From: Gossypium raimondii
Taxonomy: Eukaryota > Streptophyta > Magnoliopsida > Malvales > Malvaceae
Reading direction: 5' to 3'
Assembly: GCF_025698545.1 (NCBI RefSeq)
Contig: NC_068576.1
Coordinates: forward strand, 56,828,094 to 56,892,093
DNA: 64,000 nt
Of the stretch, positions 1,480 to 55,952 are shown piece after piece. Made by a program: the position numbers and the translations under genes. Numbering within the stretch: position 1 is the first letter of the stretch; each line of letters begins with the position of its first letter. Under the pieces are notes generated by a model that ran no database searches, was not told where the DNA came from, and saw nothing but the letters and a program-made list of their open reading frames with translations.

Positions 1480-1800
1480 TTTTATTTAAAAAATAAGTAA
1501 ATTAATCATTAACTTATTATATGTTAGATTAAAGAGTAAATTGATTTTTTTTGTTAAAAATTATTTTCTATTGTTAAAATTTGGTCTCTATATGTCAAAA
1601 TGAGGTACTCATGGTACATCATGTATAACTATATAGTTATTCTATCAACCACGTCAATTTTTAACAGTAAAAATAGATGAAATTTCAACATAAAATATTG
1701 GTTTGCTCTTTGGTCTAATGTACAAAGTCTAATTTCCCTTTTTAGTAAAGGGGAAAAAATGCAATTTGATTCCTAATATAGGGGCTTTCATGGTACTTTT
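1480..1800. repeat. Foldback repeat family A, copy 1
   Basis: One of about seven diverged copies of a foldback element in this window. The shared core is GTTAAAAAT followed by a central block mentioning AGTTATTCTATCA and then TTTTTAACAGTAAAAAT with ATCAAAGAGCAAA-type words on both sides in opposite orientation. No coding capacity. The other copies are near 22490, 35385, 36865, 46200, 53920 and 56775. Confidence 0.55.
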
Positions 1801-5361: not shown

Positions 5362-6437
5362 GAAAAGTCACATATGACATATAAATCCATCACATTTGAA
5401 AAACACATTGTCTAATTTCTTCAGGTCGATTCCAACAGTGCTTTAAGTTAACATTACCACCCTATTATGACACCCATGGAATAGGAAATTCAATAGTCGA
5501 AGCTTGTGTCCAACCTCTCTTCCTCCATAAACTCCCCTTCATCATTGAGGTAAAGTGGACAATAAATCTATGTGGTGCTTTGCAAAATCTCTACCACATT
5601 CACTTTTTTAAAACTTCCAAGTTTGGCAACTCTTCGTAGATTCGACGATGTGAGTTGCTTCCAACATAACAACTCTTCGCACCGTACTCTTTAGTGTGAA
5701 CTATCACAACCACTCACCCCCAACTTTTATGTTGTAACAAACAAAATAAAATTGTTAATTTTATAAATAATTCACTAGATCAGTCTAGAAATTGTAATTA
5801 AACCTCAACTATACTCGTTCTTGCACCTATATTTTTACTTGTGAACTCTCAGAAGAAAAATTAGGATTAATAATATTATTTGGTACATGAGTTTGGCTTT
5901 ACTGTCACAACCACCTATACTTTTACTAGAGTTTTTTTGTCCCACTTAAAAACACAAATTGGCTTCAATGTTCAATTTGATACTTGAGCTATTTTTGTCC
6001 CAATTAAGTGCTTGTGGTTTTTTACTATGACACATGTATCAAATATTCATTCGACCATATGATGCCATTTGATATGAATATCAAATTAAATATTGAAACT
6101 AAATTTAAATACCAAATTAAACATTAAAACTAAAAATCAAATGATATATTAACCTAGGATTTTGAATACCAAATATTCCTTCTTTTTGCTTTTTAAATAG
6201 GACTTTTCCCGCTTAATGGATAAGCATTTGCTACCAATGAGTAATTTTTTCTCATCTTAAATTCCAAGATTGGATTTGCGCCAATGGAAACCATAAATTT
6301 CATACACAATAGAAGGATATGGTAGATCTATCTTTTTTAGATAGTGAACGGATGAACCCCATTCTATTCACTGGTACGGTTCGTTGATACTAAAAAAGTT
6401 GTTTTTTTTCTCAGCCCATGATCTGAACAAGTTGCAC

Positions 6438-6551
6438 ATACACCCTAGTACATGTTCCTCGGCCCTGAGGGCATCCTCTAAGAGTAGGGGATTTCGTGAC
6501 ATTTCTAATTGGCTGTCTTGCATTTCTAATAAGTTGTTTAATAGTTGGCAT
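6438..6551 (-). pseudogene. rps12: Plastid rps12 5' exon copy
   Basis: The 114-base exon encodes the first 38 residues of plastid ribosomal protein S12, starting [17 protein letters not shown] and ending GTCTRVY. It is uninterrupted. It is followed on the minus strand by GTGCAACTTG, the 5' end of the trans-spliced group II intron. In plastids this exon is joined in trans to exons elsewhere in the plastome, so a nuclear copy cannot make a complete protein. It is part of the NUPT. Confidence 0.93.
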
Positions 6552-6723
6552 ACTGAATCATATACATAATAGACTGGTTTAGATCGATCATAACCAGATG
6601 ATTCTGAATTACTTCTTTTTCTATTTAATAGATTAATAAAATATTAACCCTTTAGGCTTAAGTTAAGAAGGAAAGGAAGAAGATGGATTAAATCAATCTT
6701 AATTAAATTGTGAATTGGTGCTA

Positions 6724-6790
6724 AATCGTTGCTATTGCTATTTGTTATTTAACTTATTTACTTATTTAATCGTTGCTATTGCTATTTGTT
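6724..6790. repeat. 23-bp direct repeat at the clpP truncation point
   Basis: The words AATCGTTGCTATTGCTATTT plus GTT occur twice, at 6724-6746 and 6768-6790. The second copy abuts the position where homology to clpP exon 3 stops. This looks like the scar of a deletion or slippage event in the inserted plastid DNA. Confidence 0.7.
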
Positions 6791-8726
6791 CTTTATACAT
6801 AAACCTGTGTGAGGCTTTCGCGAAGTTTCAGTAGTTCTTCCGTTTCTAGGATAAATTCTCCTGTTTGTGCCCCATAAAAAGAACTAGCAGGTTGATAGAT
6901 AATTACCCTGATCATATAACTTAATAAAAGGTTGTTCTAACTCACATAATGAGGCGAGAAGAATAGCTAAAGAATAATAAGAAAAAAAATATATAATTGA
7001 ACAACTGTATAGGCATTTTTTGTGTATTGCATACGACTTTACAATGGAATTCTCTTTTTTCTTTCATCTAAAAAAGAAAAAGAGAAAATATAGAGAGCGT
7101 CTATTAGGCCCAGATCACTAAATAATCCAATTACCACCCTTCTTTTTTTTTTCAGAAAAGTTCAAAAATACTATGATGGCTCCATTGCTTTATATATTTA
7201 TTTCGTCTATAATTCAGCAATCCCAAAGTTTGTGACGCTGAGATAGGCCCACGAAAGCTAAGATAAAATTGGAATGCCCGTTCTCTCATACTACTCTTTC
7301 GATACATAATCTAATGTTTTGAAAAAAAAAAGAAAAAAAATTTCATATCGAATTCGAAGTGCCATGCTATTATTACTTACTAATTCATATTTCATATGGC
7401 AAAGGCATAGTCTTCTTTTTTCTTTCCATCAAATAAAAAAAACTCATTGGCGCCGAGCGTGAGGGAATGCTAGACGTTTGGTAATTTCTCCTCCGGCAAG
7501 GAGAAAAGATCCCATTGAAGCAGCCAATCCCATGCATATTGTATGCACATTTGGTTGCACAAATTGCACAGTATCATAAATAGCTACTCCGGGTATTACC
7601 CATCCGCCAGGAGAGTTTTTAAACAAATATAGATATTTGGTATCATTCTCTATACTGAGATATACCAGAAGACTAATAAGTTGATTCGAGATCTCACTAT
7701 CAACCTCTTGGCCTAAAAAAAGTAATCTTTCTCGATAAAGTCGGTTGATTAGGATAAAATTGTATCCCTTAGTAGCCGTACAAGCACCTTTTGATGCAAA
7801 CGGTTCAACAAAAATTGCGAAAAATAATCAATGTGTAGATTCCAGCCATCCTTCGTTTTTTCTAGTGTGCCTTTTCTAACTTCTAATTTCTAACGAATGA
7901 GCTTTTTTTTATTTACATTTTTTAAATAAAATGAAATTCAAAATGAAATTAAAGAAAGATAAGTTTTGGCCTATTTTCCTATAATCTATAATATAGAAAA
8001 AAATTCGCTAAACTTATCGCACAAACTTTTCATTTATCTATTTTTTCATTGGGATTCAATCCAAATCACGATGTCATTTTCTTATTCTTGAATGGGCTTC
8101 ATCAATTTTTTTTTCATTTTTTTTTGTTTTATGCTCTACTCCGAGTAAAGATCCGTCCGATTTTGATTTGCGCATATAGGACAAATGACTGAATACCACA
8201 TCCTTTTTTCTATGATTTCATTTCCTTTTTTATTTTGTTTTAATTCCTTTTTCTTTCATGTTTTCTGCCAAATATTCAACGTATTTCTCATATTATTCGA
8301 TTGATTAATAGTTTGAAATCGTTCTTATTTCTATTTCGAATTTGTAAATAAAAAAGATTTATGATTATGATATAGGTGGTAATCATAAATGTATTACAAA
8401 TTGGGTTTTTTTCTAAACGGAGCATGGATGCTTCATTTTTTCGGTCCAACCAAGCCAACCATAAATCATTCTAATTGAAAATATTAATCTGGACACCCCC
8501 CAAAAATGAAATAGATCTCTAATTGCACTTCATTATACTTCACGCTACAAATTTTTGATAATTCAATGAATCTTTTTTGGGCGAAACAGAGGATATCTCG
8601 ATCGGGTGAGAGAATTGGGGAATCTCATATGACCCAATATATTGACAAGTCGCACTATATGCCAACCCAAACTGCATCTTCTTCTCCCGAATTTCGGAAA
8701 GGAACTTTTGAAACACTAATAGGCAT
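6788..8726 (-). pseudogene. clpP: Plastid clpP copy, 3'-truncated
   Basis: Copy of the plastid gene for the catalytic subunit of the Clp protease. Exon 1 at 8656-8726 (71 bases) reads MPISVSKVPFRNSGEED. Exon 2 at about 7454-7748 is open and contains [16 protein letters not shown] and the GLAASMGS segment around the active serine. Exon 3 survives only from 6906 to about 6788 ([18 protein letters not shown] onwards), then hits a TAA where a CAA is expected and loses homology. The catalytic Asp region at the 3' end is therefore missing. Both group II introns are retained. Non-functional NUPT member. Confidence 0.93.
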
Positions 8727-9137
8727 TAAAGGAAAGAAAAAGAATTAAATACTATATTTCACTTTGATCTGGAAGCGTAATGATGGTCATAACAATATTG
8801 GCCTAATATTTTATACATAGATAGAATAATGCCATAAAATAAAGAAAAACAGAATGAATGAAAGAGAATTCTTACCAATAGGTCATTTGAATGACGAACA
8901 AATAGGGATGCGTTCATTCATAAAAAATAGGATCAACCCCTGTTGTGTATTGATACTTATAGGGTATAGAATAGATCTATTTCTCTTTTTTCTTATGAGC
9001 CGAATTCTTCCCTTAATTACTAAGGGGATAGAACAAATATTAATCATTTCTCCGAAAGAATCCATCGAAAATGGGAGGTATTCAAATGCAATAAAGTTAC
9101 ATAGTGTCTATTTTTCGTCGATAAAAAGGTTATTTCC

Positions 9138-10648
9138 ATGGGTTTGCCTTGGTATCGTGTTCATGCTGTCGTATTGAATGATCCCGGTCACTTGCTTTCT
9201 ATTCATATAATGCATACGGATCTGGTTGCTGGTTGGGTCGGTTCAATGGCTCTATATGAATTAGTCGTTTTTGATCCCTCCAATCCCGTTATTGATCTAA
9301 TGTAGAGACCAGGTATATTCGTTATAACCTTAATGACTCATTTAGGAATAACCAATTCATGGGGCGGTTGGAGTATTATAGGGAGGACTATAACAAATTC
9401 GGGTATTTAGAGTTACAAAGGTGTGGTCGGAGCACATATTGTATTTTCTAGCTTGTGCTTATTAGCAGCTATCTGGCATTGGGTATATTGGGATCTAGAA
9501 ATTTTTTGTGATTAGAGCACAGGAAAACCTTCTTTGGATTTGCCCAAGATTTTTGGAATTAATTTATTTATTTCAGGAGTGGCTTGCTTTGGCTTTGGCG
9601 TATTTCATGTAGCATGAGTGTATGGTCTTGGAATATGGGTGTCAGACCCTTATGGACTAACTAGCAAGGTCCAACCTGTAAATCCGACGTGGGGCATGGA
9701 AGGTTTTGATCCTTTTGTTTCGGGAGGAATAGCCTCTCATCATATTGCAGAAGGGACATTAGGCATATTAGCGGGCTTATTCCATCTTAGTGTCCGCCCG
9801 CCCCATTTATACAAAGGATTACGTATGGGAAATATTGAAATCATCTTTTTCAGTAGTATAGCTGCTGCCTTTTTTGCAGCTTTTGTTGTTGTCAGAACTA
9901 TGTGGTATGGTTCAACAACTACCCCCATCGAATTATTTGGTCCTACTCGTTATCAATAGGATCAAGGATACTTCCAGCAAGAAATATATCGAAGGGTTAG
10001 TGTTGGGTTAGCCGAAAATCAAAGTTTATTAGAAGCTTGGTCTAAAATTCCTAAAAAAATAGCTTTTTATAATTACATTGGCAATAATCCGATAAAAGGA
10101 GGATTATTCAGAGTGGGTTCAATGGATAACGGGGATAGAATAGCCATTGGGTGGTTAGGGCACCCTATCACAAACATAAACTTTTTTTTATGTCGTATGC
10201 CTACTTTTTTTGAAACATTTTCGGTTGCTTTGGTAGACAGAGACGAAATTGTTAGAGTGGATGTCCCTTTTAGAATGGTAGAATCAAAGTATAGTGTCGA
10301 ACAAGTAGGTGTAATTGTTAAGTTTTATGGCGGCGAACTCAATGGAGTGAGTTATAGTGATCCTGCTACTGTGAAAAAATATGCTAGACGCGCTCAATTG
10401 GGTGAAATTTTTGAATTAGATCGTGCTACTTTGAAATCCGATGATGTTTTTCGTAGCAGTCCGAGGGGTTAGTTTACTTTTGGGCATACTTCGTTTGCCT
10501 TGCTTTTCTTCTTGGACACATTTTCCATGGTGCTAGAACCCTGTTTAGAGATATTTTTGCCGATATTGATCCAGATTTGGATGCTCAAGTGGAATTTTGA
10601 GCATTCCAAAAACTTGAAGATCCAACTACAAGAAGACAAGTTGTCTGA
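9138..10648 (+). pseudogene. psbB: Plastid psbB copy (CP47), multiple stops and a frameshift
   Basis: Begins [18 protein letters not shown], the N-terminus of photosystem II protein CP47, and ends near QKLEDPTTRRQ. In-frame stops occur at 9303, 9408, 9513, 9615, 9957 and 10470. A single-base loss near 10513 shifts the frame, and a short deletion lies near 10170 (GHPI then directly toward RMPTFFETF). Four of the six stops replace tryptophan (TGG to TAG). The open pieces at 9618-9959 and 10113-10472 are remnants of the same frame, not genes. Confidence 0.96.
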
Positions 10649-10829
10649 TGCAAGATTGCTTTGTTATTTTTCGCTTCTACTTCTATTTGTGATTTGTCAT
10701 AGGCTGCTGGAAAAATCTTGATTTAAATCGCTGCCTTTTCTTTTATTCTTGTTCTTTCTTTATTTTATTCGGGAGATGATTCCAAATAAACAGGTACGGA
10801 AGCTATAATTGTAAACCACAATCGAATTT

Positions 10830-10937
10830 ATGGAAGCATTGGTTTATACATTCCTCTTAGTATCTACTCTCGGGATATTTTTTTTCGCTATCTTTTTTAG
10901 AGAACTGCCTAAAATTCTAACTAAAAAAATGAAATGA
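10830..10937 (+). pseudogene. psbT: Plastid psbT copy, frame open
   Basis: A 35-residue frame starting [16 protein letters not shown] and ending KKMK matches the small photosystem II subunit PsbT, including its single membrane helix. The frame is open, but several residues differ from the usual sequence near the C-terminus. It lies in order downstream of the psbB copy. With no plastid promoter context or transit peptide in the nucleus, it is taken as non-functional. Confidence 0.9.
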
Positions 10938-10953
10938 TTTTTCATTATCTCAA

Positions 10954-11097
<144 letters not shown>

Positions 11098-11189
11098 TCA
11101 AGATCAGAATCGGTCTATGATAAGATTGTTTATTTACAACGGAATGATATACAAAGTCAACAGATCTCACTGAATACAAAATAAGATTT

Positions 11190-11411
11190 ATGGCTATAGA
11201 AACCTTTGAGGGTAGTTCTAGATCTGGTCCAAGACGAACTGTTGTAGGGGATTTTTTGAAACCATTGAATTCGAAATATGGTAAGGTAGCCCTTGGATGG
11301 GGAACGACTCCTTTGATGGGTGTCGCAATGGCTTTATTTGCGATATTCTTATCTATTATTTTGGAGATTTATAATTCTTCCGTTTTACTGGATGAAATTT
11401 CAATGAATTAG
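11190..11411 (+). pseudogene. psbH: Plastid psbH copy, frame open
   Basis: A 73-residue frame matches photosystem II phosphoprotein PsbH over its full length: the N-terminal [20 protein letters not shown] with its phosphorylated Thr region, the membrane helix [17 protein letters not shown] and the end LLDEISMN. Several replacements relative to the usual sequence (GDFLK, NSKYGK, ALGWG) indicate relaxed constraint. The frame survives although neighbouring psbB does not, which is plausible by chance given its short length. Confidence 0.93.
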
Positions 11412-12751: not shown

Positions 12752-13507
12752 ATGCCAGCCTTTGAACCCAAAAATCAACGTTTAAACTCAGAGAATTCGA
12801 AAATTTCAAAGAAGTTTCGAATCAAATACACCGATCCCAATGCTACAGATTCATCTAGTGAAGAAGAAGAAGAGAATCAAATTGTGGGTATTAAACGAAT
12901 CGTCAAAGAGATTTCTTGGTCAACCGTTGTTTTAGATAATGACTTCACCAGTTCTTCTTCAATGACGGCGAAGGGTGTTCGAAAAAGGCCTTGGGGTAAA
13001 TTCGCTGCTGAAATTAGAGATCCTTTTACAAAGAAACGATTATGGCTTGGTACTTTTGATACTGAAAAGGAAGCTGCCGTTGTTTATAATAAAAAGAAAC
13101 GTGAATTTCAAATTATGTCGGCGGCGGCGGAAGATGAGTTGTATTGTCGACGGTCGCCGTCGTCGGTGCTTGATGTTTGTGTTGGTAAGGTTGAAGATGA
13201 AACTGATATGAAACGGCACGTGGTGAAGAAAGTTGTGAAAGAAAGTAGAATTATAGAGCCATGTAAAAGGACTATAGAAGAAGATGAAGTATGTGTTAAT
13301 GCTGTTTGGGACGATGTAGGATCGGTTATGGAGTTATCATGGGAACCTCCCCCGCCGTTATGGGATGAGGAGCTTTTGGGGCCTTGTTGCCTTCAAGATA
13401 CGGTGGATTACGGGCTGACGTTGCCGGAGAATCTGCCGGCGATTGAAACAGACTTTGTGCAAGATATGGCTTGGGTGGATGAATTTTTCAACGTGGAAAG
13501 CGAGTAA
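12752..13507 (+). CDS. AP2/ERF transcription factor, CRF-like (group VI/VI-L)
   Basis: Single-exon gene for a 251-residue nuclear transcription factor. Residues 20-41 ([20 protein letters not shown]) match the CRF motif of cytokinin response factors. Residues about 74-122 form one AP2/ERF DNA-binding domain ([17 protein letters not shown], then [20 protein letters not shown]). The usual WAAEIRD is FAAEIRD here. The last part of the domain reads KKKREFQ instead of the common AAIxLRG, which suggests the CRF10-12-like VI-L branch. The tail is acidic and Trp-rich ([21 protein letters not shown]), consistent with an activation region. The start is the first ATG of the frame. DNA binding of GCC-box type is inferred from the family. 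Confidence 0.9.
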
Positions 13508-20500: not shown

Positions 20501-22242
20501 AAGCTCAAGAAAATCAACCAGCTTAATAGAATTAAAACAATTAAGGTTTAACTGATTGGACAAACGACAATGTACTAAAACCTACAACAAGAGGGTGAGA
20601 TGAGCCATGCAGCAATACACCATCCCCTAAATACCTTCAAAACACAAAATTGTGCAACATTGTTACGAAGGTCAAAATCCTGGAACTCTATACTGTCTTC
20701 ATGCAATAGGGTAAATCTGCATTTGGAATATAACATTTTACAAGTTGGATATAGCACAGATGAACACTGAAAAAGAAAACAAGATAAACGAAACGATTTT
20801 AATAAAATATAAGCTCAAAAGAAGTGAAACAAACTTTTAAAGGGCCAACTCTATCGTAAACAAAAGCCATAAGCATATATAACTGCTTGCGACATCTCTC
20901 AGATGTTTATTAAGCAAATGAGGTGAGAGTAGACTGGCATGACAAATAAAATAATTGCGATAATAATAGCTCATATTTATCTTCAACTCATATGAAGAAT
21001 AAGCATCTAGGCATTTACAATTATAGGCAATAAATGTTGCATATGGCAAAAATAGAAATTATACCAAATCAAACTTATATTAAAGGAGGTTGATAAGATT
21101 ACTTTTTTTCATTCCAGAATAAAGCACAACCATCACATGCATCACCTGTGCGAACCTGGAGTAATTTGTAATTACAATTGTGTTAGTAGAAGAAGTTGAC
21201 AGTATAGCCACTGGACTGGGGGAAAGCACATAGAAAAATTTAGTATACCTTGTAAACACCTTTAAAGCCATTTTCATGCAGAAGATCATCCAAATCCTTA
21301 AAACGATCAACCTCCTACAGAAGTAAGAATGGACTATAAGAATATAACCAACAAATAAATTGTCAAGTCTCGCTGACTTCGACTAGGCGAATGTATTTGA
21401 TTTTAATCTTATATTAAAAGAATCATAAACTCACCTGAAAACACAGGATGTCAGCATTGTAATGATTGACCTCCTTACATATTAGGCCTTTACGTCTATC
21501 CCACTTTAAGAACTTTCGTGGGACATTAAGATACAAATCGGGATGCTTTGCTGCATTTTCCACACCAAGTATATTATATGAAACAATGACAACTTTATCT
21601 GCAAAACAATAGTTCAAAGATTAGGCAAGGATAAAACAAATTGAAAATTAGATGAAAAATTCATCTTCCCAAAATAGTTGAGATTCAAAAACATTCTTAA
21701 CTTTCTAGAAAAGGGTAATATAGAGCAGTAGTAATAAATGGTAGGGAAAGCTAATGTCCAATGCTCTAACTAACCAAAATACACTTACCATAATATTTAT
21801 ATGAAATTTTTATACCTTTGCAATCAGAACAATCGTAGGAAGAGAAGACCCAGTTGCGGGAAGCTTCCGAGCTTCTGCAATTGTTTCTCTTCTGCCACCG
21901 TTTGTGCACCCGAGACGACGAAGATGAGCAAGGACGAATGGCGTGGAAACGATTCCAACCCGGCGGGTTTCGTACCGGTTCCGGGTTTAGAGTTAGGGTT
22001 TTTGTTTTAGTTTTAGTTTCAGAAGACACCAATTTTTGCCGCTTGGTTTGTCGGTTACAATGAAATTCTTCAAAGTAAATATGCTTCCGTTTAACGGTGG
22101 CGCTCGACGTTTCCTCCGGCATAAGTAGGCATTCCTTTTTTGTCATGCTGCCGGAGAATTTTTTTTTATGGATAAGCCGGAGAATTATTCGACGACCGAC
22201 GAGTTTTTTTTTTTTTCCCCTTGCAGTGAGGCTTGCATACAA
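17600..22242 (-). CDS. CCR4-like endonuclease/exonuclease/phosphatase-family protein, 14 exons
   Basis: Predicted Mg-dependent poly(A)-specific exonuclease of the carbon catabolite repressor 4 homolog group (closest by eye to plant homologs 5/6), acting in mRNA deadenylation. Exons (minus): 22242 or 22146-21816, 21598-21435, 21314-21249, 21155-21103, 20716-20635, 20100-20054, 19577-19490, 19288-19196, 19081-19049, 18909-18812, 18373-18235, 18060-17975, 17900-17816, 17668-17600. All junctions are GT-AG, and phases sum to 477 aa from the ATG at 22146 or 509 aa from 22242; the first 96 bases cross a poly-T tract, so the inner start may be used. EEP catalytic motifs are complete: VSYNILG (Asn119), FQEVD (Glu166), VGDFNSIPQ (Asp302, Asn304), WGSDHLAL (Asp460, His461). 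The N-terminal ~110 residues are basic and disordered. Confidence 0.92.
22204..22217. repeat. Poly-T tract at the CCR4-like gene start
   Basis: An uninterrupted run of T lies between the two candidate start codons of the CCR4-like gene; on the minus strand it encodes the KKKK of the longer N-terminus. Such tracts are prone to length variation, which would shift the frame of the longer start but not of the one at 22146. Confidence 0.6.
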
Positions 22243-23190: not shown

Positions 23191-25436
23191 AGAAAAAAAA
23201 AATCTACCTACCATTTCATAATTATTATATTATTATTCTTTTTAATTTATTTTGGTATTTAAATCTTTTTTAGCTTAGCTAGATTAGTACCTAATATTAC
23301 ATTTTGTTACTAGTTCACTTCACTACCGTTAAAAAATGATATACTTTAATGGCGAAATGATGCTTTAAGCCATATCCATATATGATAAAGAGTGGAAGAA
23401 GAGTGAAATAATGAGGAATTGAGAGCATGCAAATACGAAGAGAGAATCTGGAAGGCAGGAGCTTAGAGCTAAGACAAATAAATACAAAAAACATCAGCAA
23501 ACCGTACTATCCTCGGAACTCAAACAAAATGCAATGTCTTCCGATGTAATCACATCCTTTGCAGCCTTTTTTCAATTTCCTTTAGGGTACGGTACGTATG
23601 TTGGTTGAATTAAGTTATCTCAATTTATTGTTAATTTTAAATTTAAAAAAATTAAAAAAGCTATGGACGGATATAAAAGTACGAATTTTTAATCTAAAAA
23701 TTATACTATTAATAAATAAAATAAGAACACAATTTACAACAATAGTTTTATGCCATTTTGTATCTTTTATAGAGTAAATATTTTGATGATCTAACCGTTA
23801 TACATGTAAATTTTTGAATTGATTCAATCTCTTTATCTTATTTATCTAAAATATTATATATATTAATATTTATTGAATGACCTACAGTCTTTTTATATAA
23901 AACAGATAGTTATAATTTTTAATTTTCATAAAATTTAACATATTAATCGTACAAAGAGATAGAAAATAATGTAAAACCACTTTAATTTTATATCAATACA
24001 AATCAATCTCTTCCTTAAATTTTATATTATAAATAAGTAAAATATGGACACAAATTAGAATAATATTATTAATTATATGATAATCGAGTAATATAGGGAT
24101 TTTAAAGGGTCCCTAAAATTGGTAACTTTTTAAATTGGCCCGTAACTTTTTATTCTTTAATGTTTAAAATATTTTTAAATTTTATATTTTTACAATTTCT
24201 TGTAATTTACTAAAAATTTAACCAAATTTATTTTTTAAAATATATTTAATTTTTTATTTCTTTGAAATTTTAACAAAATTTATTGTTTTTATTTTAAATT
24301 TATCTATATTCATTTTTTGTTTTCAATATATATATTTTTGAAGTTTTATAATTTATATATTTCTTGGGTTTTAACAAATTTTCAAGGTGTTTTAAAAAAA
24401 ATTAAGAACGGTTAAAGATGAATTCATGTGTCGTCCTCTTATTTCTCCAAGTGCCAGCCCCATACTTGTCCACATCAATAAATTTTTTAAAAAATAAATG
24501 ATGTTAATATAGGGACCAATTTATGTAACAAATGCTAACCTTAAAGACCAATATAAAAAAAAATTAAAGTTCAATGTGAGCAAAATTATCAAATCTAGAG
24601 GTGAATCTATATATTAAACCAAATTTAAACTAATTTGAAATAAACATAAGACTATTCACTAGATAACATCACATTGGCAAGGATGAAGTGCATATATTTC
24701 CACCATAAGATCAAGACCGTCCCTTTAATCTACGTCGAGGGAATCCAACGGTTGGGGTTTAAAAGGGGTGTAGATAGGTCAGTGTCGTGTGTGTATCTGG
24801 GAAAGCTATTTTAGTTTACGCCTTTTATATAATAATTCTACTGTCTTATTTGTCTTCTTGCATGAAATCAGGAAATAATTAAAAAAAGGACAGTGCCAAA
24901 GGTGAATCTGGTGAGAATAAAATGGTACGGCCAAATCTTTACAAAGATTCCATCAAATCTCAATCCGACAACACATGCTACATTGCTATGCGTAGACTAC
25001 CCTTTATTGTTTGAACCATTGTCTCTATATTTATGTCGTGTTTATAAAAAAATTCATATATTATTATATTGAAGTAGTTGGCATTTTTCTTTATGTCGAG
25101 AGGTGGACTTTTTCCTGATGAAATATTTGAAATGTTTTCCCCTTGATGTTAATGGGATTGGGTTTTATTTCTTGATTTTGTAAAAAGTTAAGTATTTAAT
25201 AAGGTAGATTCAACAGAGTAAAAAATTTTTGTCACGATAAATTACACGTGATAAAAGAACACTTTTCAAGAAAATATGAGTACTTGTGCTTGTGTCCTAA
25301 AATATATATGACATTTGAGGACTATTCGCCGTCTCAAGCATTTAGATTTTATACAAAGTTAAGAGATAAAACTTGAATTGGAGACAATACTGACCCGTTG
25401 AGAGTTTATCAACTTTAAATGAACGGCATTTGAGGA

Positions 25437-25461
25437 TTATTATTATTATTATTATTATTAT
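25437..25461. repeat. ATT microsatellite
   Basis: About eight perfect ATT/TTA triplets in a row. A candidate length-polymorphic marker upstream of MIR319. Confidence 0.8.
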
Positions 25462-25838
25462 TGAACATTTCCGGTCTAAAAGAAAAGCAGAAGAATCCAA
25501 GAGAAATGAAACATAGAAATCATAAAATAACCAGATAAACACGTATTTCAAGTACTTATATATTCATAGTTGATGAACCGTGTGGTTTGAAGTATTCTAC
25601 CAACTAATAAAATTGCTGGGTTGTTGTTATGGAATGAATCAATGATTCAAGACTTGTTAATATAATATGTAGATCTCATATCTTATTCTTAAACAACATT
25701 TTTAATAAAAATTTGAATCCTCGAACGAAGACAAAAAGGTATACAAAAAAGAGCTCGACTCTCATTTAGGTTCCAACTCGGCTGGATGTGCCAAACTTTA
25801 TGGTAGGTAAGGAGGGGGGGGGATAGAGTTTGTGTTAG

Positions 25839-25846
25839 TATATAAA
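25839..25846 (+). promoter_or_regulatory. TATA box of MIR319
   Basis: TATATAAA lies about 50 bases upstream of the base of the miR319 hairpin and is followed by GGAAGGAACAAGGGAGGG. This is the usual TATA form of plant Pol II microRNA promoters and would place the transcription start near 25870. Confidence 0.65.
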
Positions 25847-25889
25847 GGAAGGAACAAGGGAGGGAATTACACATCCCTTTCTCTTCTTG

Positions 25890-26100
25890 TTGAATAAAAG
25901 AAAGGGAGCTCCTTTTGGTCCAATACAGGGGGCAGAGAAGGGGATAGAGCTGCCATCTCATGCATTCCGGCTATGCTTAAACCTTTACCTCCATCGTCTA
26001 ATGTTAAGCAGAGCCAGATGCATGGTGTGGGAGCAACTCCTTCCCCATCCTTTGCCCACCCATTGGACTGAAGGGAGCTCCCTGCTTCATTGCATGCATG
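25890..26100 (+). ncRNA. MIR319: MIR319 microRNA precursor
   Basis: The 21-base mature miR319 sequence lies on the 3' arm at 26063-26083; it starts TTGGACTGAAG and ends GAGCTCCCT, identical to the canonical plant miR319 as I know it. The 5' arm at about 25900-25924 (GGGAGCTCCTTTTGGTCCAA) is its partner. The stem continues upward: GGGGGCAGAGAAGGGGATAG pairs with CCTTCCCCATCCTTTGCCC, giving the long stem typical of the miR159/miR319 families, processed from the loop downward. The Cys at position 6 (GGACTG, not GGATTG) separates it from miR159. Known targets are TCP transcription factors controlling leaf growth. Overlapping open frames on both strands are incidental. Confidence 0.95.
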
Positions 26101-26127
26101 TCATTGCATGCATGAATGCATGCATCT
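26085..26127 (+). repeat. CATGCA-rich tract next to the miR319 hairpin
   Basis: TGCATGCATG words recur several times (for example 26092-26100, 26106-26114, 26118-26125). They overlap the base of the hairpin. RY-type CATGCA elements bind B3 factors in other promoters; here the tract may only be a simple repeat. Confidence 0.6.
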
Positions 26128-27524
26128 TAAATATTTCTCTAAATCATTTGCCATTTTTGTTTATGATTGCTTGTTTTCCTAGTCCTTTTTAACTCTCTTT
26201 TTTATTTTTTCAGGCTTTTATTCAACTTCACGCAGTGATGAAAATGGAGGAAAGCAAAATTGCAGCTAAAGAGACAGTACAGTTGATGACATACAACACA
26301 ACGATAATGTCTCAAGATTTAAGAAAGTCCCCTCACCTTCATATTTCCCTTTGCAAAGGGTGTCTACAGAAAAGGGATATATTATGAACACCGTATCAGT
26401 GTAAACTCCAGTTTATTTTCCTTCTAAGCATGTATGAGGTAAATGATATTGTTAAATTTGGCTTTTCCTAAACCTTACATTTTTCTTATATTTGAAATTA
26501 AGTTATTTTGAAATTATTTTTAAGAATTAGTTTTTTTTTTAATTTTTGAGTTTAAAAATGTAAGTCACTGAAGTTTTCTCTTACATAGCTGATATGATTT
26601 GAGTACCTCCATAGGCATATGGCCATTCAAGAACAAACTCTTAGTTCCTTTTAAATTGCACTATTATTATTATTTTTTCTTTTGAAGAGGTTTCTTTAAT
26701 TATTGCAGTTACTTGAGGATCAAATTATGGTTGCTTGGAATGGTTAAAAGTATAATCTGTAGCATTCAACACATTTATTATTGGTAATATACAACATGAT
26801 TCCAAGCAAAATATACAGTAATTATGCTACAATGCATGTACTCCTATGATAGGCTATACCATATTCATGCATTTATTGTGTACGTGCTAGTTAAGGTTCA
26901 ATGCAATTATATACTTCAAAGGTATCAAAATATACATCTCAAAATTCATAAATAGTAGATAAGTATTTAAACTCAAAAATAAAAAAACATCAGACACATC
27001 TTTAAATCTAAAAAATAATCAACATTTACATGTATTTTTATTAAACAAGTTACACTAATTTTTGAAATTTAAGTTCTCAAATGTATCCCAACCTTAATTG
27101 AGAAACGAAATACATTACAAAAATGGTATGGCAAAACTACCCAGATTGAACCACCTTGTTTCACATAGTCAAAGCATCAAAACCCTTGATGGTAGTCCAT
27201 GACACTCGATACATGTAAGCCCTTCCCCAATTCAGCCATGATGTATAAAATACTCGTTGGTAAAAATATGCGCATGTCACGGGCTGAGACTTCACATACC
27301 TGACGTTATCAGGAAAAGGAAAATATTATGATTTTATGGCTTCTGGAATGCACACCAGAGAACAAAAAAGCCATAACAAGAATATTATATGGGACTTTGA
27401 GATGATAAACTTTCTCATCAGCCAAATGGAATTTCATAGTTCCTAAAGAAGCAATATAATGATTACCTCAAGGGGCTATGGCGAACATGAGAAACTGTTA
27501 ACTCCAAAATTTTTAGAAACTTGA
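26128..27524. other. Spacer between MIR319 and the 3' end of the CFM3-like gene
   Basis: Contains a strong polypyrimidine tract and CAG at about 26190-26213 that looks like a splice acceptor, followed by roughly 190 bases of less AT-rich sequence. This could be a downstream exon of the MIR319 primary transcript. The remainder is AT-rich. The sequence from about 27120 to 27524 should include the 3' UTR of the minus-strand CFM3-like gene. Confidence 0.4.
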
Positions 27525-30500: not shown

Positions 30501-33500
30501 ATAATAGCAGTAGCCTTTCCAAGAAGCTAGACATGCTTATACAAAGAAGCTTGTATGGTTAATTTTCCAATGGTTACTAACAATAAACTAGTAACAGATT
30601 CAAAATTGCATATTCTTTGTAAGATTTTTCATTTCAACCAACAGGGTATAGATATTATACTTACAATAGCTAATTTATGTTCCACGCGTTTTACAAGTTT
30701 AGCGTGCTTAGCTTTGGAAGCTTCTTCAATCATCTTTTCACGTTCTTCAGCAGATATATCTCTTCCCCAGCGGGCTTGAGCCTCATAAAACTCAGCCAAA
30801 GTACCAGCTGGTGCCTGTCCTTTGTCTTCACCTGATTGAGCTGGCTCAACTGCTTTGATCCGGAGTTTCTCTTCAGCATCTTGTATCTGTTTTGTCAAAT
30901 CTTGTCTTTCTGCCAGAGCAGCTGCAACATTTGTTGGAAGGAAATCTTTTCCGCGGTATATGACAATAAAATACTTGTTTCTAAGCAGCAAGACACCTCC
31001 AGTTAAGTTCTGCAAAATTGTTAGTACGCATGAGAAGTATATTCTTCTGTCTCTTTTGAAAGTGCAGCATATCTTAAATGATGAAGAGTCCAAAGAAAGA
31101 CAAAAAAATGTCATACACCAGTAAAAAAGATCACTTCAGTATGAATCAGGAATATGAATATGCAATTGCAACAAGGCAGAAGACTATGATCATGCAAAAC
31201 ACAAGATACCAAAGCCTATACACAAAAATATCACTTCAGTAAAAAAATGTATGACATTTTCTAAGCAGCAAGACACCTCCAGTTAAGTTCTGCAAAATTG
31301 TTAGTACGCATGAGAAGTATATTCTTCTGTCTCTTTTGAAAGTGCAGCATATCTTAAATGATGAAGAGTCCAAAGAAAGACAAAAAAATGTCATACACCA
31401 GTAAAAAAGATCACTTCAGTATGAATCAGGAATATGAATATGCAATTGCAACAAGGCAGAAGAATATGATCATGCAAAACACAAGATACCAAAGCCTATA
31501 AGTTGTAAAAGAACATACCTTTAGCTCCTCAGCCATAAGCTTGTTATTTGTATTCTGAATACCTCGTTTTACAGCAATCTTTGCAACGACGCTTTTCTCC
31601 CAAAGTTTAATTATTGCTGCTGCCAATCCCTGGTGGTTTCTATTCCTCCCTAGAAGAATATTTAAATAGTGAAACTCTGTATAATGTCACCAACAGAAAA
31701 GGTAAAGTAAGAGAAAGCATGGAGAAAAGGTGAACATACCCAGGGCAAAATGACAAGGAAGTGATTTAGCAATTTTCCGTAAATTTGTCATCTCTGCATT
31801 GGTAAGCCGTGGTCTCATTCCAGCAGGAAGAAGCCTGAAAGGTGTTTTATAACCAGGTATCTTTGGAGGAAGTAAATCAGCATCAACTGGAAGTATTCCT
31901 GTACCCCACCACTCAACAAATCGAGGTCCTAGACCATCTAGTAGGATGTTATACTCAGCTTCCTCCTCAGTCATGCTTTCACTACGTTCTGGCTTCACCA
32001 CAACCTTATCAGATTTTTCTGAGGTTGAACCTGATCCTGTTTCACTTTCCCTTTTGCCAGCAGAAGAAACATCTGGGATAAAAAGAGCTTCTCCTTCTCC
32101 AGATTGGGATTTAGAAGGACCTTCGTAGTTACTCCCACGATAGACCACCATAACACTTCCAGATCTCCATATAACTAATCCTCCTGTACGACGCTGACCA
32201 TCAATTCAAGCCGTGAATATTATATGTTGTAATAAGTGCTCAGAAGTTAGAAACAGACACCAGATTAAAGCACGGAAGCAAGGAATTATAGAATTTGGCG
32301 ACACACATCCTAGTTACTTCAAAACCTACCCAAAAAAACAAACAATCCGATCTACCACTCAACTTAAAACTAAATGGCCTGTTACTTATATGACAAGCTC
32401 CTTATTTATGTCCAACAAGCAATTCATATGTCCATGAAACATTTGATCTATCCATTTCAAATGAAAAACTAAATCAATACTACATCATTATCACCATTCA
32501 CCATGTAAAAACAAAAACCAAAAGTCTTAAATGCTTAATGTATCAACCAATCTATATCTACTCCATAGAAATCAAAATCTTATTATAACTATATTGCTTC
32601 CATGATAAGATCATTCAAATTTTCTTTTAGAAAGCAAAATTCTTAGATATAAACTTAACCCCAAGGCTAAAAAAGGATCCTTAAGTCAGACGCATGAATA
32701 ACAAAAACTCGAACCAATAACATAATCTCGAACTACATTACTCGGACTCTTCATTTTTCATGCATAACAAAAAAATCTTAGATATAAACTTAACCCCAAG
32801 GCTAAAAGATGATCCTTAAGTCATAGCCATGCATGACTATGTTGCTCGGTCTCTTCATTTTTCATGCAGTACTTGTGTCTCAGATTCGTATCCGAGATAT
32901 CGGGATACTGGGATATGACCTCCTTCAAATACATACAAAAACTAATCATAGCCATGTCGGATATATACCCGTATCCGACGCTCACAACCGAGTCCAAACA
33001 ACACCGGCAAAAACAAAAACTCTTACATTTCTAATGACAAGAGCAAAAACCAACCTCAACAATCTCATGAGCAGTCCTCATATCGACGGCGAGAAATTCA
33101 TGAAACTTAAGCCTAACTAGCTCCTCCTTTCTCCACTTATCATGAATCTTTTCAAGAACCACCTTCGTAATCCCCGCCTTGGGTACATTGATTCTTTCCC
33201 TTAAATGCATCCCCATCCTCCTCAACCTCCTAAGCTCCTCATCCTCAATTGTCAGCTCAGCCAACGTTGGCGCCTTGACTGTCCTCTTTTTTAGTAGACC
33301 TCCCTCCTTCACCACCACCTCCACCACCGCCTCCTCTCGCTCCCACGGCAGCACAGCTTCTTCTTTTTCTTTCTCTATCAGCCTCGTATCAGGCCGAACC
33401 CATTCTCTCTTCAACAAATCACCTAACCTCTCTTCTCCAGTCACCGGCGTCGAATTATAATCGTCAGTTCCGTCATCTTCTTCGTCTTCGTCATCTGATC

Positions 33501-35074: not shown

Positions 35075-38000
35075 TCAACTTCCAAACGAATTTCTACTGA
35101 GAGAAGGCGATGAGTTCAACATCTCTTGACCGACCTCCTTTATCTTGTTCAGTAGAAGCATCTGCTCGGTTTCGAGCTGTACCATGTATTCTTCTTGCAT
35201 ATCTTGAAGAGCTTCGAGTTCACTGAGTGGAGTTGAAATCCCTTCGAGGATGCCATCATCGATTAAAGATTGAAGCTTGATCATCATTTGTTTCATCTGT
35301 ACAAAACCCGCATCCAACAAAATATGTCAGGGTTCGATTTGTTCGGTCTATTCACTAGTTCATTAAGTGATCAATGGGTAAAAGTACTACGGAGGTCCTT
35401 ATACTAAAAATCGAATTGTATTTTGTCAATTCTACTCAAAAAATGAGCAAATTAATTCATGTGCGTTAAATTCAAGATTCCTTCTATTAAAAAGTTCATC
35501 AATTTCTACTGTTAAAAATAACATGGCTGACAGAATAATAGTCGAAATTGATAAAAATTTTAACTGAAAGAACCAATTACTCTTTGATTTAACACACAGA
35601 AACTAATTTGTTCATTTTTTTAATAAATGAGATAGAATACAATCTGACTCCTTGTGCTTTTATTGTGATCAATGATGATCGAGATAAACAAGATGTTTTC
35701 ACCTGGCTCGATATTTGATGAGCTTTTGTCAAGGATGTATCAGGGTCGACACTCGGTTTTTTCTCTAGTTCCGGAACTTTTCTCGTAACTTGAATGTGAA
35801 TCTCTCCCCTTTTGACCCCTTGAAGCGGTATCCACTTGTCAGCCATCTGGTTTGGAGGCAATCTCTGATATTCTACAACACAATCACCTATGCTCGATGT
35901 CGGTAGCACCGCGTTGTGGTCTTTCACGTGCAACTCTAAAGGATTGCCATTGTCGGGGAATTCCAATGTTTGATGCCACTTAGGATTTAATGTTTTGTAC
36001 ATAACCTGCAGGGGCAATCCATGGAACCATCAAACACTATTGCCATTGTCACTGCAAATATTTATTTTCGTGAAGGATGAAAGATCGTGCAAAGGGAGAG
36101 GGGTGCAGGCAGTGGCCTTGACCCCCAAAAGATGAAAAATTTTTTGTATAGTCCCTTTAGTTTTTAGAAAATCACAAATTAATATAATAGTAAAATTACA
36201 CTTTGGCCTCCCAAAAAATAAAATTCACTTGAAAAACATACCAGCATATATATATTGCAATTATTTCAAAATTATGTTGTCTCAATACCTTTGTTCGTCT
36301 CTTCAAGTTTCCATACTGCACCCTAACATATGGATCACTTGTCCCCCTTAGATCAGCAGCTACGAGATCTCTTGCTTCGATAAGCACAAGTTCAATCCAA
36401 CCATTGCCAGAATATGAAGAACCCTTGAGGAAAAAATGAACACGTATCAGCATAGATGCACTTCAGATCGAAGATCATCAACTAGTATGCATTATATCAT
36501 AAAGGCCATGCAGGTAGGTTTAAAAGTGCTACCCAACTTGCTTATGCACATAACCTTATTTACTAAAATCATTTACAATATGTTGCATATGTTCGAAGTT
36601 TTCTTTCTGTGAACCAAATGATTTAGCCTGAAGTTAAATGTCTTTTATATATACATGTAGGTTTAAAAGAGCTACCCAACTCGCTTATGCACGTAACGCT
36701 ATTTACTAAAAACATGTATTTCTGTGAATCAAACGAACGCCACTTTTGCATATAAATGACATTTTATCTTTAGGCTAAATTGTTTGGTTCACACAAAGAA
36801 TATTATGAAAACATGCGTACATGTTTTTAGTAGATAAAGTTACGTGCATAAGTGAGTTGAGAGTAAAAGTATATGGAAGTCTTTGTATTAGGAGTCGAAT
36901 TGCATTTTACTCCCTCTCCTCAAAAAATGTGTAAACTAGTTTTTGTATATTAGATCAAAGAGCAAACCAGTCATTTGTTAAAAATTTCATACATTTTTAC
37001 TGTTAAAAACTGGTCCTTATACCTCAGCATGAAGTACACATGGCACATGTAATTGCCTAGTCATTCTGTCAATTAAACCAGTTTTCAAAAGTAAAAATGG
37101 ATGGAATTTTTAACAAAAAAGACCAGTTTGCTCTTTGATTTAATATACAGAGACTAATTTGCCCATTTTTTTAGTAAAGATGGCAAAATGCAATCCAACT
37201 CCAGGAGCCTCCATGAGACTTTTGTCGTGAGCAGAGTAGCACTTTTAAACCTACCAGCATGGCCTGTGTAATATATTATTTTAATTCTTTTTCCCCATAG
37301 CTACTATTTTTTTTCCTTCCTTCAAAAGATTACAGCAATGCTCTACCACTTCATGCAAAAAAAAAAAAAAGTTACCCTTGATCCTTCATAGTCATCGATC
37401 CGAACTGCTTCTATCTGGATCCTTAGTTCTCCTGAATTCACTTTCTCAAGAGGGATCCACACATCCCTCGGTGACCCTTCTACCAATCCCTCGAGACTTA
37501 TATGCGCACTGCCAATGCTGTCATCTCCAAAGACCTCTTCAGTGTAGCATTTTATCTTCAGATATTCGTTATCTCCTATTTCATCAAACTCGAATCTCTG
37601 GTTCCAAACCGGATTAAAAGAATGTGCAGTCTTTGTTTTCTGAAGAACCTGAAAAGAATTCATAGTAAAGATCAACGGTAAGCATAATTAATTCCGGTAT
37701 AATAATGTGTAATATTACACTCACAACCTCAACTCCATCATACCTTTCCATATTGCAATTTAACATATGGATTACACTTTCCACTTTTGTCTTTCGTAAT
37801 AAGATCCTTCCCTTCCACAACTGTTACAATAATTTTCCTTCCAGTTCCTGGAAGGAAATTTGATGACCCGTTCAGTGACGGTTGTGAGCTAACACGGAGG
37901 TTGTTGAAGCTAAGAGAACCATCGGAAAATTGCCATTCTTTTATCACAAGCTTCACTGCCAACTGCTCAGCACATATGAATTTCGATAGTTTAATATTCT

Positions 38001-46199: not shown

Positions 46200-46520
46200 A
46201 GTATTATAGAAGCTTCTATACTAGGAGTTAAATTGTATTTTATTTATTCTATTAAAAATAGGCAAATTTTTCTTTTGTGTGGTAGATCAAAGAACAAACT
46301 AGTCATCCTGTTAAAAAGTTCATCTATTTCTATTGTTAAAAATTGGTTATTGTACGTCAACATGAGGTATACGTGGGTGCCGTTGTCGAGTTATTCTATC
46401 AATTACATCAGTTTTTAATAGTACAAATGGATAGAATTTTTAACAGAAATAATCGGTCTGTTCATCGATCTAACATACAGGAATTAATTTACTTATTTTT
46501 TAGTATACGAGGAAAAACGT
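46200..46520. repeat. Foldback repeat family A, copy 5
   Basis: Starts CTATACTAGGAGTTAAATTG, contains ATCAAAGAACAAACTAGTCA, GTCAACATGAGGTATACGTG and TTTTTAATAGTACAAATGGA. The same order as copy 4 but more diverged. Confidence 0.6.
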
Positions 46521-54600: not shown

Positions 54601-55952
54601 ATGACATCACCATCATCGTCGTCGTCATCATCTCTTAAAAAAACAAGCACAAGTTGCAGTGAAGATGAAGGTGATCATCATCAACAGCAGCTGAGGAGAG
54701 GACCTTGGACTATAGAGGAAGATTCAGTCCTTGTTCATTACATTGCTCGACATGGTGAAGGTCGATGGAATTTTCTTGCAAAACATGCAGGTAACTGATA
54801 AAAGAGACAGCTGGTTTTATATGTTGAACAAGACAAGACTAAAACCCTTTTCTTGTTGGCTTTAAGGTTTAAGGAGAACAGGCAAGAGTTGCAGGTTGAG
54901 ATGGTTGAATTATTTGAAACCAGATGTTAAGCGTGGGAACCTTACTGCTGAAGAACAGTTTTTGATCCTTGAACTCCATTCTAAATTGGGTAACAGGTAT
55001 GTCTGTCTGTCTTAGGGGTGAAGGAGAAGTTTATCTTTGTATATGCTTGTTATTTTAGAAATTTAAAAGGATCAAATTGAAAAAAATTCACTTTTTCGGA
55101 AGGTCAGTGTATTTTTACCATTAAATTAACTTATAATTTTAAAAACTTTAAGGAACTAAATTAATAATTTGCCATTTTGGGCCTGCCCCCTTGACGCAGA
55201 TTAAACTTTTCATTTTTTGGAGGATCAAAGTGTATTTTTACTATTAAACTAACATGTAATTTTAAAAACTTCAAGGGACTAAAATAATAATTTGTCAATT
55301 TTGGGCTTACCTCCTTGGCATGTATGTATGTTTTTTCAGATAAAAGTTGGCTGTTTTGATCGGACATGACATTGTGTTTGTGAATTTTTTTAGGTGGTCC
55401 AAGATTGCACAGCATCTGCCTGGAAGAACCGATAATGAGATCAAGAATTACTGGAGAACCCGTGTGCAAAAACAGGCTCGGCAGCTTAACATCGATGCTA
55501 ACAGCGCGGCGTTTAAGAACATTCTCCGATATTATTGGATGCCAAGATTGGTTCAAAAGATGGAAGAGTCGTCGTCGCCCTGTTTTTCAACGACGGTTAT
55601 TCCTCGGAACCAACCGTTAATGAAGACCGATTACGTTGACGGGAATTCATGTGTTTCGTCATTAGAACATGTGGATGATATGAAAATGTCCCAATTTGGG
55701 ATATTTGGTAGCAATGATTGCAATAGTAATGCTCTTGCAAAGGACTGGTATGGTTATGTTGGTGATAATGGTAGCTATTGCCATGGCATGGAAACCATCA
55801 ACATGGCGTCCACGTCAGCACTGGTCGGGGAGGGATTTCCGACCCCCGCCGCGGATTGCCACTTGGCGGATGATAATTGGGTTAATGATGGTTTTGTAGA
55901 TGGGATATGGAGCATGGGGGAACTATGGGAACTTAGAAATGCATTGCATTGA
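54601..55952 (+). CDS. R2R3-MYB transcription factor, subgroup-20-like, 3 exons
   Basis: Predicted nuclear DNA-binding protein of 292 aa. Exons 54601-54790, 54867-54996, 55394-55952; introns are GT-AG and phases match (1 and 2). R2 spans about 32-82 with Trp at 36, 56 and 76; R3 spans about 86-133 with Phe95, Trp108 and Trp127, as usual for plant R3 repeats. The region after R3 ([16 protein letters not shown], then [10 protein letters not shown]) carries the WMPRL motif of subgroup 20, the group that includes MYB2/MYB62/MYB108/MYB112/MYB116; MYB62/MYB116 seems closest by eye. The C-terminus is acidic. Members act in stress, phosphate or stamen/senescence responses, but the specific role here is not shown. 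Confidence 0.92.
55050..55335. repeat. Tandem pair of a dispersed repeat in MYB intron 2
   Basis: Two copies of about 120-130 bases: 55050-55195 and 55200-55335. Each contains GTGTATTTTTACxATTAAA, ATTTTAAAAACTT, AAGGxACTAAA and a GGGCxTxCCxCCTTG end. They fill most of the 397-base intron 2. Similar single copies occur at about 36085 and 58290. Confidence 0.65.

What the first reader, a model, noticed from the sequence alone, without database searches (positions are those of the whole stretch)
25890..26100. MIR319 gene with a perfect mature sequence and TATA box
The 21-base 3'-arm sequence at 26063-26083 is the canonical miR319, and the 5' arm and long upper stem pair with it. A TATATAAA at 25839-25846 fits a Pol II start. 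It is easily missed because overlapping open frames on both strands look like genes. miR319 regulates TCP genes, so this small locus is likely the most developmentally important element in the window.
Basis: partly seen in the sequence, partly recalled or inferred. Interest (0 to 1): 0.7.

Follow-up and report, generated by a model that had tools for sequence, protein, structure and literature searches.

The report
Ordinary plant microRNA319 gene
This stretch of a plant genome carries a standard gene for miR319, a small RNA that in well-studied plants restrains leaf- and flower-shaping TCP genes; the gene's kind is well known, and its one odd detail is an extra 130-base piece next to the base of its hairpin.

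Summary
Window 26063-26083 (+) is an exact 21-nt miR319. The stretch 25894-26094 matches Rfam RF00638 (MIR159 family) at 102.6 bits against a gathering score of 74, on the plus strand. It folds at -111 kcal/mol, z -8.6, with 0 of 200 shuffles as stable, and all 21 miRNA bases are paired. TATATAAA is at 25839-25846 as stated, but the word is common here (20 against 15.1 expected), so it is only supporting evidence. Four frames read across the hairpin have no Pfam match.

This is a new member of a known kind: a MIR319 gene, expected to be diced from loop to base and to repress TCP genes. One feature went unreported: a 12-bp lower stem (25889-25900 with 26215-26226) is separated from the miRNA by 130 nt (26084-26213) that end in a strong splice-acceptor-like sequence. 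That suggests an intron in the primary transcript, possibly one holding the whole hairpin (25807-26213), or an insertion; chance is not excluded. Expression, start site, splicing and targets could not be tested. Interest is low.

The parts
25839..25846 (+). TATATAAA, candidate TATA box; a CA initiator at 25870-25871 would put it at -32 to -25
   Evidence: Sequence; word frequency; TATA position and C/A initiator preference of maize MIR genes from PMC2773440 passages
25871..25871 (+). candidate transcription start (A of CA), giving a 32-nt leader before the hairpin and no ATG before 25960
   Evidence: Sequence; inference, no transcript data; such a leader is short next to the maize mean of 523 nt
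25903..26083 (+). MIR319 fold-back (Rfam match 25894-26094)
25905..25925 (+). expected miR319* (2-nt 3' overhangs), GGAGCTCCTTTTGGTCCAATA
   Evidence: Derived from the pairing, sequence printed; not shown by reads
26063..26083 (+). mature miR319, TTGGACTGAAGGGAGCTCCCT
   Evidence: identical to Arabidopsis miR319a.1 and b.1 in PMC2945783
26012..26038 (+). region corresponding to Arabidopsis miR319.2 (second duplex of the upper stem); its 5' end is uncertain by 5 nt; 26017-26034 pairs mainly with 25949-25966
   Evidence: Pairing; the pairwise alignment puts the start at 26012, my comparison by eye at 26017; small RNA letters from PMC2945783; inference
25889..25900 (+). 5' strand of a predicted 12-bp lower stem
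26215..26226 (+). 3' strand of the lower stem, perfect complement of 25889-25900
26084..26213 (+). 130-nt segment between the miRNA and the lower-stem partner; T 0.49 overall, T 0.57 and G 0.08 over 26130-26213; GCTT at 26084-26087 recurs at 26214-26217
26198..26214 (+). TTTTTTATTTTTTCAG|G, 3' splice-site-like sequence, the only match in the window to the pattern YYYYYYNYYYYYYCAGG
   Evidence: the shorter TTTTTTCAGG also occurs twice on the minus strand
25805..25812 (+). AG|GTAAGG, best 5' splice-site-like sequence near the hairpin; a candidate intron 25807-26213 would contain the hairpin and the TATA box

Best explanation
It is a nuclear plant MIR319 gene on the plus strand, in an interval between a minus-strand stretch that reads like a CCR4-type gene (by eye only) and a minus-strand CRM-domain gene. 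RNA polymerase II makes a non-coding transcript, probably from the TATA box at 25839 with a start near 25871. The transcript folds into a long hairpin, which DICER-LIKE1 is expected to cut from the loop towards the base in steps: an upper duplex (miR319.2-like) and then the miR319/miR319* duplex. miR319 loaded on ARGONAUTE1 (recalled) would cleave mRNAs of CIN-class TCP genes encoded elsewhere. Shown here: sequence, fold, profile match. Inferred from the family: transcription, start site, dicing order, the second duplex as a product, ARGONAUTE loading, targets.
For: Exact 21-mer, identical to Arabidopsis miR319a.1/b.1 (PMC2945783 passages) and to grapevine MIR319B/C (PMC2822795 passages). Rfam RF00638 102.6 bits over 196 of 196 model positions, plus strand. 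Fold -111 kcal/mol, z -8.63. Full pairing of the miRNA, probability 0.945 or more at each of 21 bases. A paired upper stem at about the place where Arabidopsis makes miR319.2. TATA box at a fitting distance from a CA initiator. No Pfam match for 4 frames over the hairpin.
Against: No transcript or small-RNA data. The TATA word is common in the window, and a 32-nt leader would be short: in maize the 5' region averaged 523 nt (PMC2773440 passages). The minus strand folds almost as well (-108.2 kcal/mol, z -7.45), as a near-palindromic region does. No TCP-type target site was found in the window: with up to 6 mismatches the script listed the two hairpin arms and one weak site at 52229. That says nothing about the rest of the genome, which could not be searched. 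Only one other MIR319 precursor was available for comparison.
Confidence: 0.95

Rival explanations
1. Still a MIR319 gene, but of other architecture: the hairpin lies in an intron (25807-26213) of a longer spliced non-coding transcript that starts upstream of 25805; miR319 comes from the unspliced RNA or the intron, and the TATA box at 25839 is a second promoter or chance.
For: AG|GTAAGG at 25805 is the best donor-like site among the GT sites of 25600-26204 (7 of 8 consensus positions). The acceptor at 26198-26214 is the only match to its pattern in 64 kb, both strands (0.18 expected). The segment before it is T-rich and G-poor, the sequence after it is not. An intronic plant miRNA is known: miR400 (PMC4454879 passages).
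Against: AGGTAAG occurs 7 times in the window with 6.22 expected; 18 of 100 shuffles contain an acceptor-like match, and the shorter TTTTTTCAGG occurs twice more, on the minus strand. [quoted passage not shown] The upstream sequence was not tested for exons.
Confidence: 0.25
2. Still a MIR319 gene, with a separated base: the 130-nt segment 26084-26213 parts the miRNA from its lower-stem strand, either as an intron in the 3' region of the pri-miRNA (for example 26100-26213) or as a DNA insertion with a 4-bp GCTT duplication.
For: A 12-nt perfect complement lies just below the hairpin and just after the acceptor: 5 of 3000 shuffles of 26084-26500 (3 of 3000 of 26084-26284) reach 12, and 0 of 150 other 417-nt stretches of the window do. 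All 12 pairs form in the minimum-energy fold with or without the segment. Arabidopsis MIR319a has a lower stem directly below its duplex.
Against: Noticed after the fact. With the search widened to 26084-27084, 20 of 3000 shuffles reach 12. No good donor lies between the hairpin and the acceptor (best 5 of 8, ATGTCATT at 26100). Alignment to Arabidopsis scores 49 without the segment and 48 with it, no real difference. A 4-bp repeat is weak evidence of insertion, and the segment has no other copy in the window.
Confidence: 0.35
3. The hairpin is a decayed or silent MIR319 copy.
For: No expression data. The window also holds a decayed plastid insert and MITE-like elements.
Against: Mature sequence exact, duplex fully paired, upper stem intact, full-length Rfam match.
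Confidence: 0.04

Closest known systems
Arabidopsis MIR319a (sequence of the artificial-miRNA backbone printed in PMC11506499)
   Same: Identical 21-nt miR319 on the 3' arm, long upper stem, a lower stem below the miRNA duplex
   Different: Window miRNA is paired at 21 of 21 bases; in the Arabidopsis fold 17 of 21. The Arabidopsis lower stem follows the miRNA directly; in the window its 3' strand is 130 nt away.
Rfam RF00638 (MIR159 family, whose consensus carries a miR319-like 3' arm)
   Same: Full-length match, 102.6 bits
   Different: Mature sequence is miR319, not miR159 (Arabidopsis miR159 TTTGGATTGAAGGGAGCTCTA is recalled)
Intron-split plant miRNAs: monocot MIR444 and Solanaceae miRtop14 (PMC11706861 passages)
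   Same: An intervening sequence separates the two strands of a stem in the primary transcript
   Different: [quoted passage not shown] here the miRNA duplex is contiguous and only the lower stem is parted. No splicing has been shown here.

Membership tests
MIR319 | Mature 21-nt miR319 sequence | tested here: met
   0 mismatches at 26063-26083
MIR319 | Precursor of the MIR159/MIR319 kind, miRNA on the 3' arm of a long fold-back | tested here: met
   Rfam RF00638 102.6 bits, gathering 74, positions 1-196 of 196; fold
MIR319 | miRNA/miRNA* pairing by plant miRNA criteria (few mismatches, no large bulge; criteria recalled) | tested here: met
   21 of 21 bases paired, 3 G:U
MIR319 | Paired upper stem giving miR319.2 | tested here: inconclusive
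   Paired stem at about the right place; compared with one species, alignment and eye differ by 5 nt; production not shown
MIR319 | 21-nt reads and DCL1-dependent loop-to-base processing | not testable with these tools
   No small-RNA or degradome reads here; mode known from other plants (PMC7577975 and PMC2945783 passages)
MIR319 | Targets CIN-class TCP mRNAs | not testable with these tools
   Own-genome search did not complete; targets from PMC6934063 passages
MIR159 | Mature miR159 sequence (TTTGGATTGAAGGGAGCTCTA, recalled) | tested here: not met
   The window sequence equals miR319 at all 21 positions
[quoted passage not shown]
   miRNA and star arms lie in one contiguous hairpin

The most novel reading that the evidence does not exclude
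A MIR319 primary transcript whose lower stem is split by an intron, or sits across a splice acceptor, so that splicing and the closing of the hairpin compete or cooperate. Loop-to-base dicing would explain why a split lower stem is tolerated. This would be an intron-split stem in a deeply conserved miRNA family.
Probability: 0.12. Interest if true: 0.4.

Novelty: new member of a known kind. Interest (0 to 1): 0.15.

Why it matters
It adds one correctly placed MIR319 gene to a plant genome, useful for annotation because open frames run across it on both strands. If the parted lower stem proves to be spliced, it would offer a natural test of whether loop-to-base precursors need their base at all, and of how splicing and dicing share one RNA.

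Tried and rejected
Protein-coding reading: ORFs 25887-26192 (+) and 25689-25961 (-) have no Pfam match, nor do 26193-26384 (+), 25870-26100 (-) and 25898-26068 (+). Antisense hairpin as the gene: it folds well, but the Rfam match at gathering score is on the plus strand and the exact miRNA is on plus. A leader-encoded peptide: no ATG between 25871 and 25960. A second MIR319 in the window: none with up to 3 mismatches. TCP-type motifs (recalled) in 24871-25870: no GTGGNCC, GGNCCAC, GGACCA or TGGTCC, so no support for feedback by TCP. Repeated TGCATG words in 26087-26126: not pursued. Relatives: the 21-mer has no exact match in viral contigs or genome contigs, as expected for collections of viruses and prokaryotes. 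Six short fragments, four from this precursor and two from the Rfam consensus, were searched in the paper library: 0 papers. The only full MIR319 precursor I found in text is that; of 3 papers listed and 6 (two papers are in both lists), I looked into three and not into PMC3502355, PMC4214822, PMC5751366 or PMC6636069. So no covariation test was made. The species was not identified; of the 16 papers listed for miR7502, 14 titles concern cotton, a weak hint only.

Full report
Check of the observation. The sequence at 26063-26083 on the plus strand is TTGGACTGAAGGGAGCTCCCT, exactly miR319; with up to 3 mismatches there are 2 matches in the window, this one and the complementary 5' arm, against a mean of 0.00 in 100 shuffles. 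The same letters are given for Arabidopsis miR319a.1 and miR319b.1 in PMC2945783 (passages) and for grapevine MIR319B and MIR319C in PMC2822795 (passages). The region 25880-26110 folds at -111 kcal/mol against a shuffle mean of -69.4 (z -8.63, 0 of 200 as stable). The hairpin 25903-26083 has 69 pairs, and all 21 miRNA bases are paired, three as G:U. The minus strand also folds well (z -7.45).

Family. A scan of the whole window against 4227 Rfam families at gathering score gives RF00638, the MIR159 family, at 25894-26094 (+) with 102.6 bits (gathering 74), E 2.9e-21, model positions 1-196 of 196, and no minus-strand match to that family. The mature sequence places it with miR319 and not miR159 (the miR159 letters are recalled).

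Promoter. TATATAAA is at 25839-25846. The word occurs 20 times in the window with 15.12 expected, 12 times on the plus strand, so its presence near the hairpin has roughly a 2% chance per 100 nt. A CA dinucleotide at 25870-25871 puts the A 32 nt after the first base of the word. In maize, 83% of pri-miRNAs have TATA-like motifs at -23 to -28, and C at -1 with A at +1 is common; but the 5' region there averages 523 nt (PMC2773440 passages), and a start at 25871 would leave a leader of only 32 nt, without an ATG. The start site is inference; no transcript data were available.

How it most likely works. In Arabidopsis, MIR319 precursors yield a second small RNA, miR319.2, on the loop side of the miRNA duplex, and cutting of miR159/miR319 precursors starts at the loop end (PMC2945783 passages; PMC7577975 passages on loop-to-base processing). 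The window has a paired stem at about the corresponding place: 26017-26034 pairs mainly with 25949-25966; the pairwise alignment puts the counterpart's start at 26012, my eye at 26017. miR319 targets are CIN-class TCP genes (PMC6934063 passages). No such target site was seen in the window: with up to 6 mismatches the script listed the two hairpin arms and one weak site at 52229.

The bases just below the hairpin, 25889-25900, are perfectly complementary to 26215-26226. The two strands pair in the minimum-energy fold of 25871-26250 and close a multiloop; in the fold of 25871-26240 their pair probabilities are 0.91 or more. Between the miRNA end and the second strand lie 130 nt, 26084-26213. A match this long to 25880-25902 is reached in 3 of 3000 shuffles of 26084-26284, 5 of 3000 of 26084-26500, 20 of 3000 of 26084-27084, and in 0 of 150 other 417-nt stretches of the window. 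Arabidopsis MIR319a, as printed in PMC11506499, folds with a lower stem directly below its duplex. Direct alignment does not prove homology of the two lower stems: scores 49 and 48 without and with the segment.

Intron-like features. The segment ends in TTTTTTATTTTTTCAG|G, the only match in the window to the pattern YYYYYYNYYYYYYCAGG (0.18 expected; 18 of 100 shuffles have one); the shorter TTTTTTCAGG occurs here and twice on the minus strand. It is T-rich and G-poor (26130-26213: T 0.57, G 0.08), unlike 26214-26440 (T 0.28, G 0.19). The best donor-like site nearby is AG|GTAAGG at 25805 (7 of 8), upstream of the TATA box; the best after the hairpin is weak, 5 of 8 at 26100. AGGTAAG is not rare (7 in the window, 6.22 expected). 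So either the hairpin lies in an intron 25807-26213 of a longer transcript, or a weak donor is used downstream, or the acceptor is chance. Introns downstream of the hairpin are usual in plant pri-miRNAs, and for MIR163 and MIR161 they raise miRNA levels (PMC3701235 abstract and passages). Introns that split the hairpin itself are known for miR444 and for miRtop14 of Solanaceae (PMC11706861 passages). The present case differs, because its miRNA duplex is contiguous.

Neighbourhood. On the minus strand lie pieces with CRM-domain matches between 29729 and 33876 (3 pieces; one, 31690-32205, is below the Pfam cut-off) and pieces with C2-domain matches between 35589 and 40109 (4 pieces); that each set is one gene is inference. 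A minus-strand stretch at 21426-21620 reads like a CCR4-type nuclease by eye but has no Pfam match. The MIR319 gene is in the interval between these, opposite in direction to both.

Verdict. An ordinary, well-supported MIR319 gene, a new member of a known kind, with a small structural peculiarity worth one look in RNA-seq. The whole-genome search did not complete, so paralogues, targets and relatives in this plant remain unknown.

Noticed in passing
window about 6197-11327: Decayed plastid DNA: Rfam matches for rps12, clpP (5'UTR and intron), psbT antisense and psbN, and psbB (CP47) in separate reading-frame pieces (9618-9959 and 10113-10472 match Pfam PSII; the first also CP47 chains of the PDB). 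Edges not determined.
   Followed up: partly
window 1552-1690, 36976-37115, 46309-46445: Three matches to Rfam MIR7502, two of them on both strands. The latter two have imperfect terminal inverted repeats (36 of 45 and 31 of 45 identical; 17 of 45 for the first, ungapped), so this 'miRNA family' looks like a MITE family.
   Followed up: partly
window 26087-26126: Three near-tandem copies of a TCATTGCATGCATG unit just after the miRNA, holding TGCATG words (RY-like, recalled).
   Followed up: no
window 30978-31220 and 31258-31500: A 243-nt stretch is present twice, 100% identical, 280 nt apart, between CRM-domain pieces: a recent local duplication or an assembly artefact.
   Followed up: partly
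window 12752-13507 (+) and 55347-55952 (+): ORFs with AP2 (just above the Pfam cut-off) and MYB DNA-binding domain matches.
   Followed up: no
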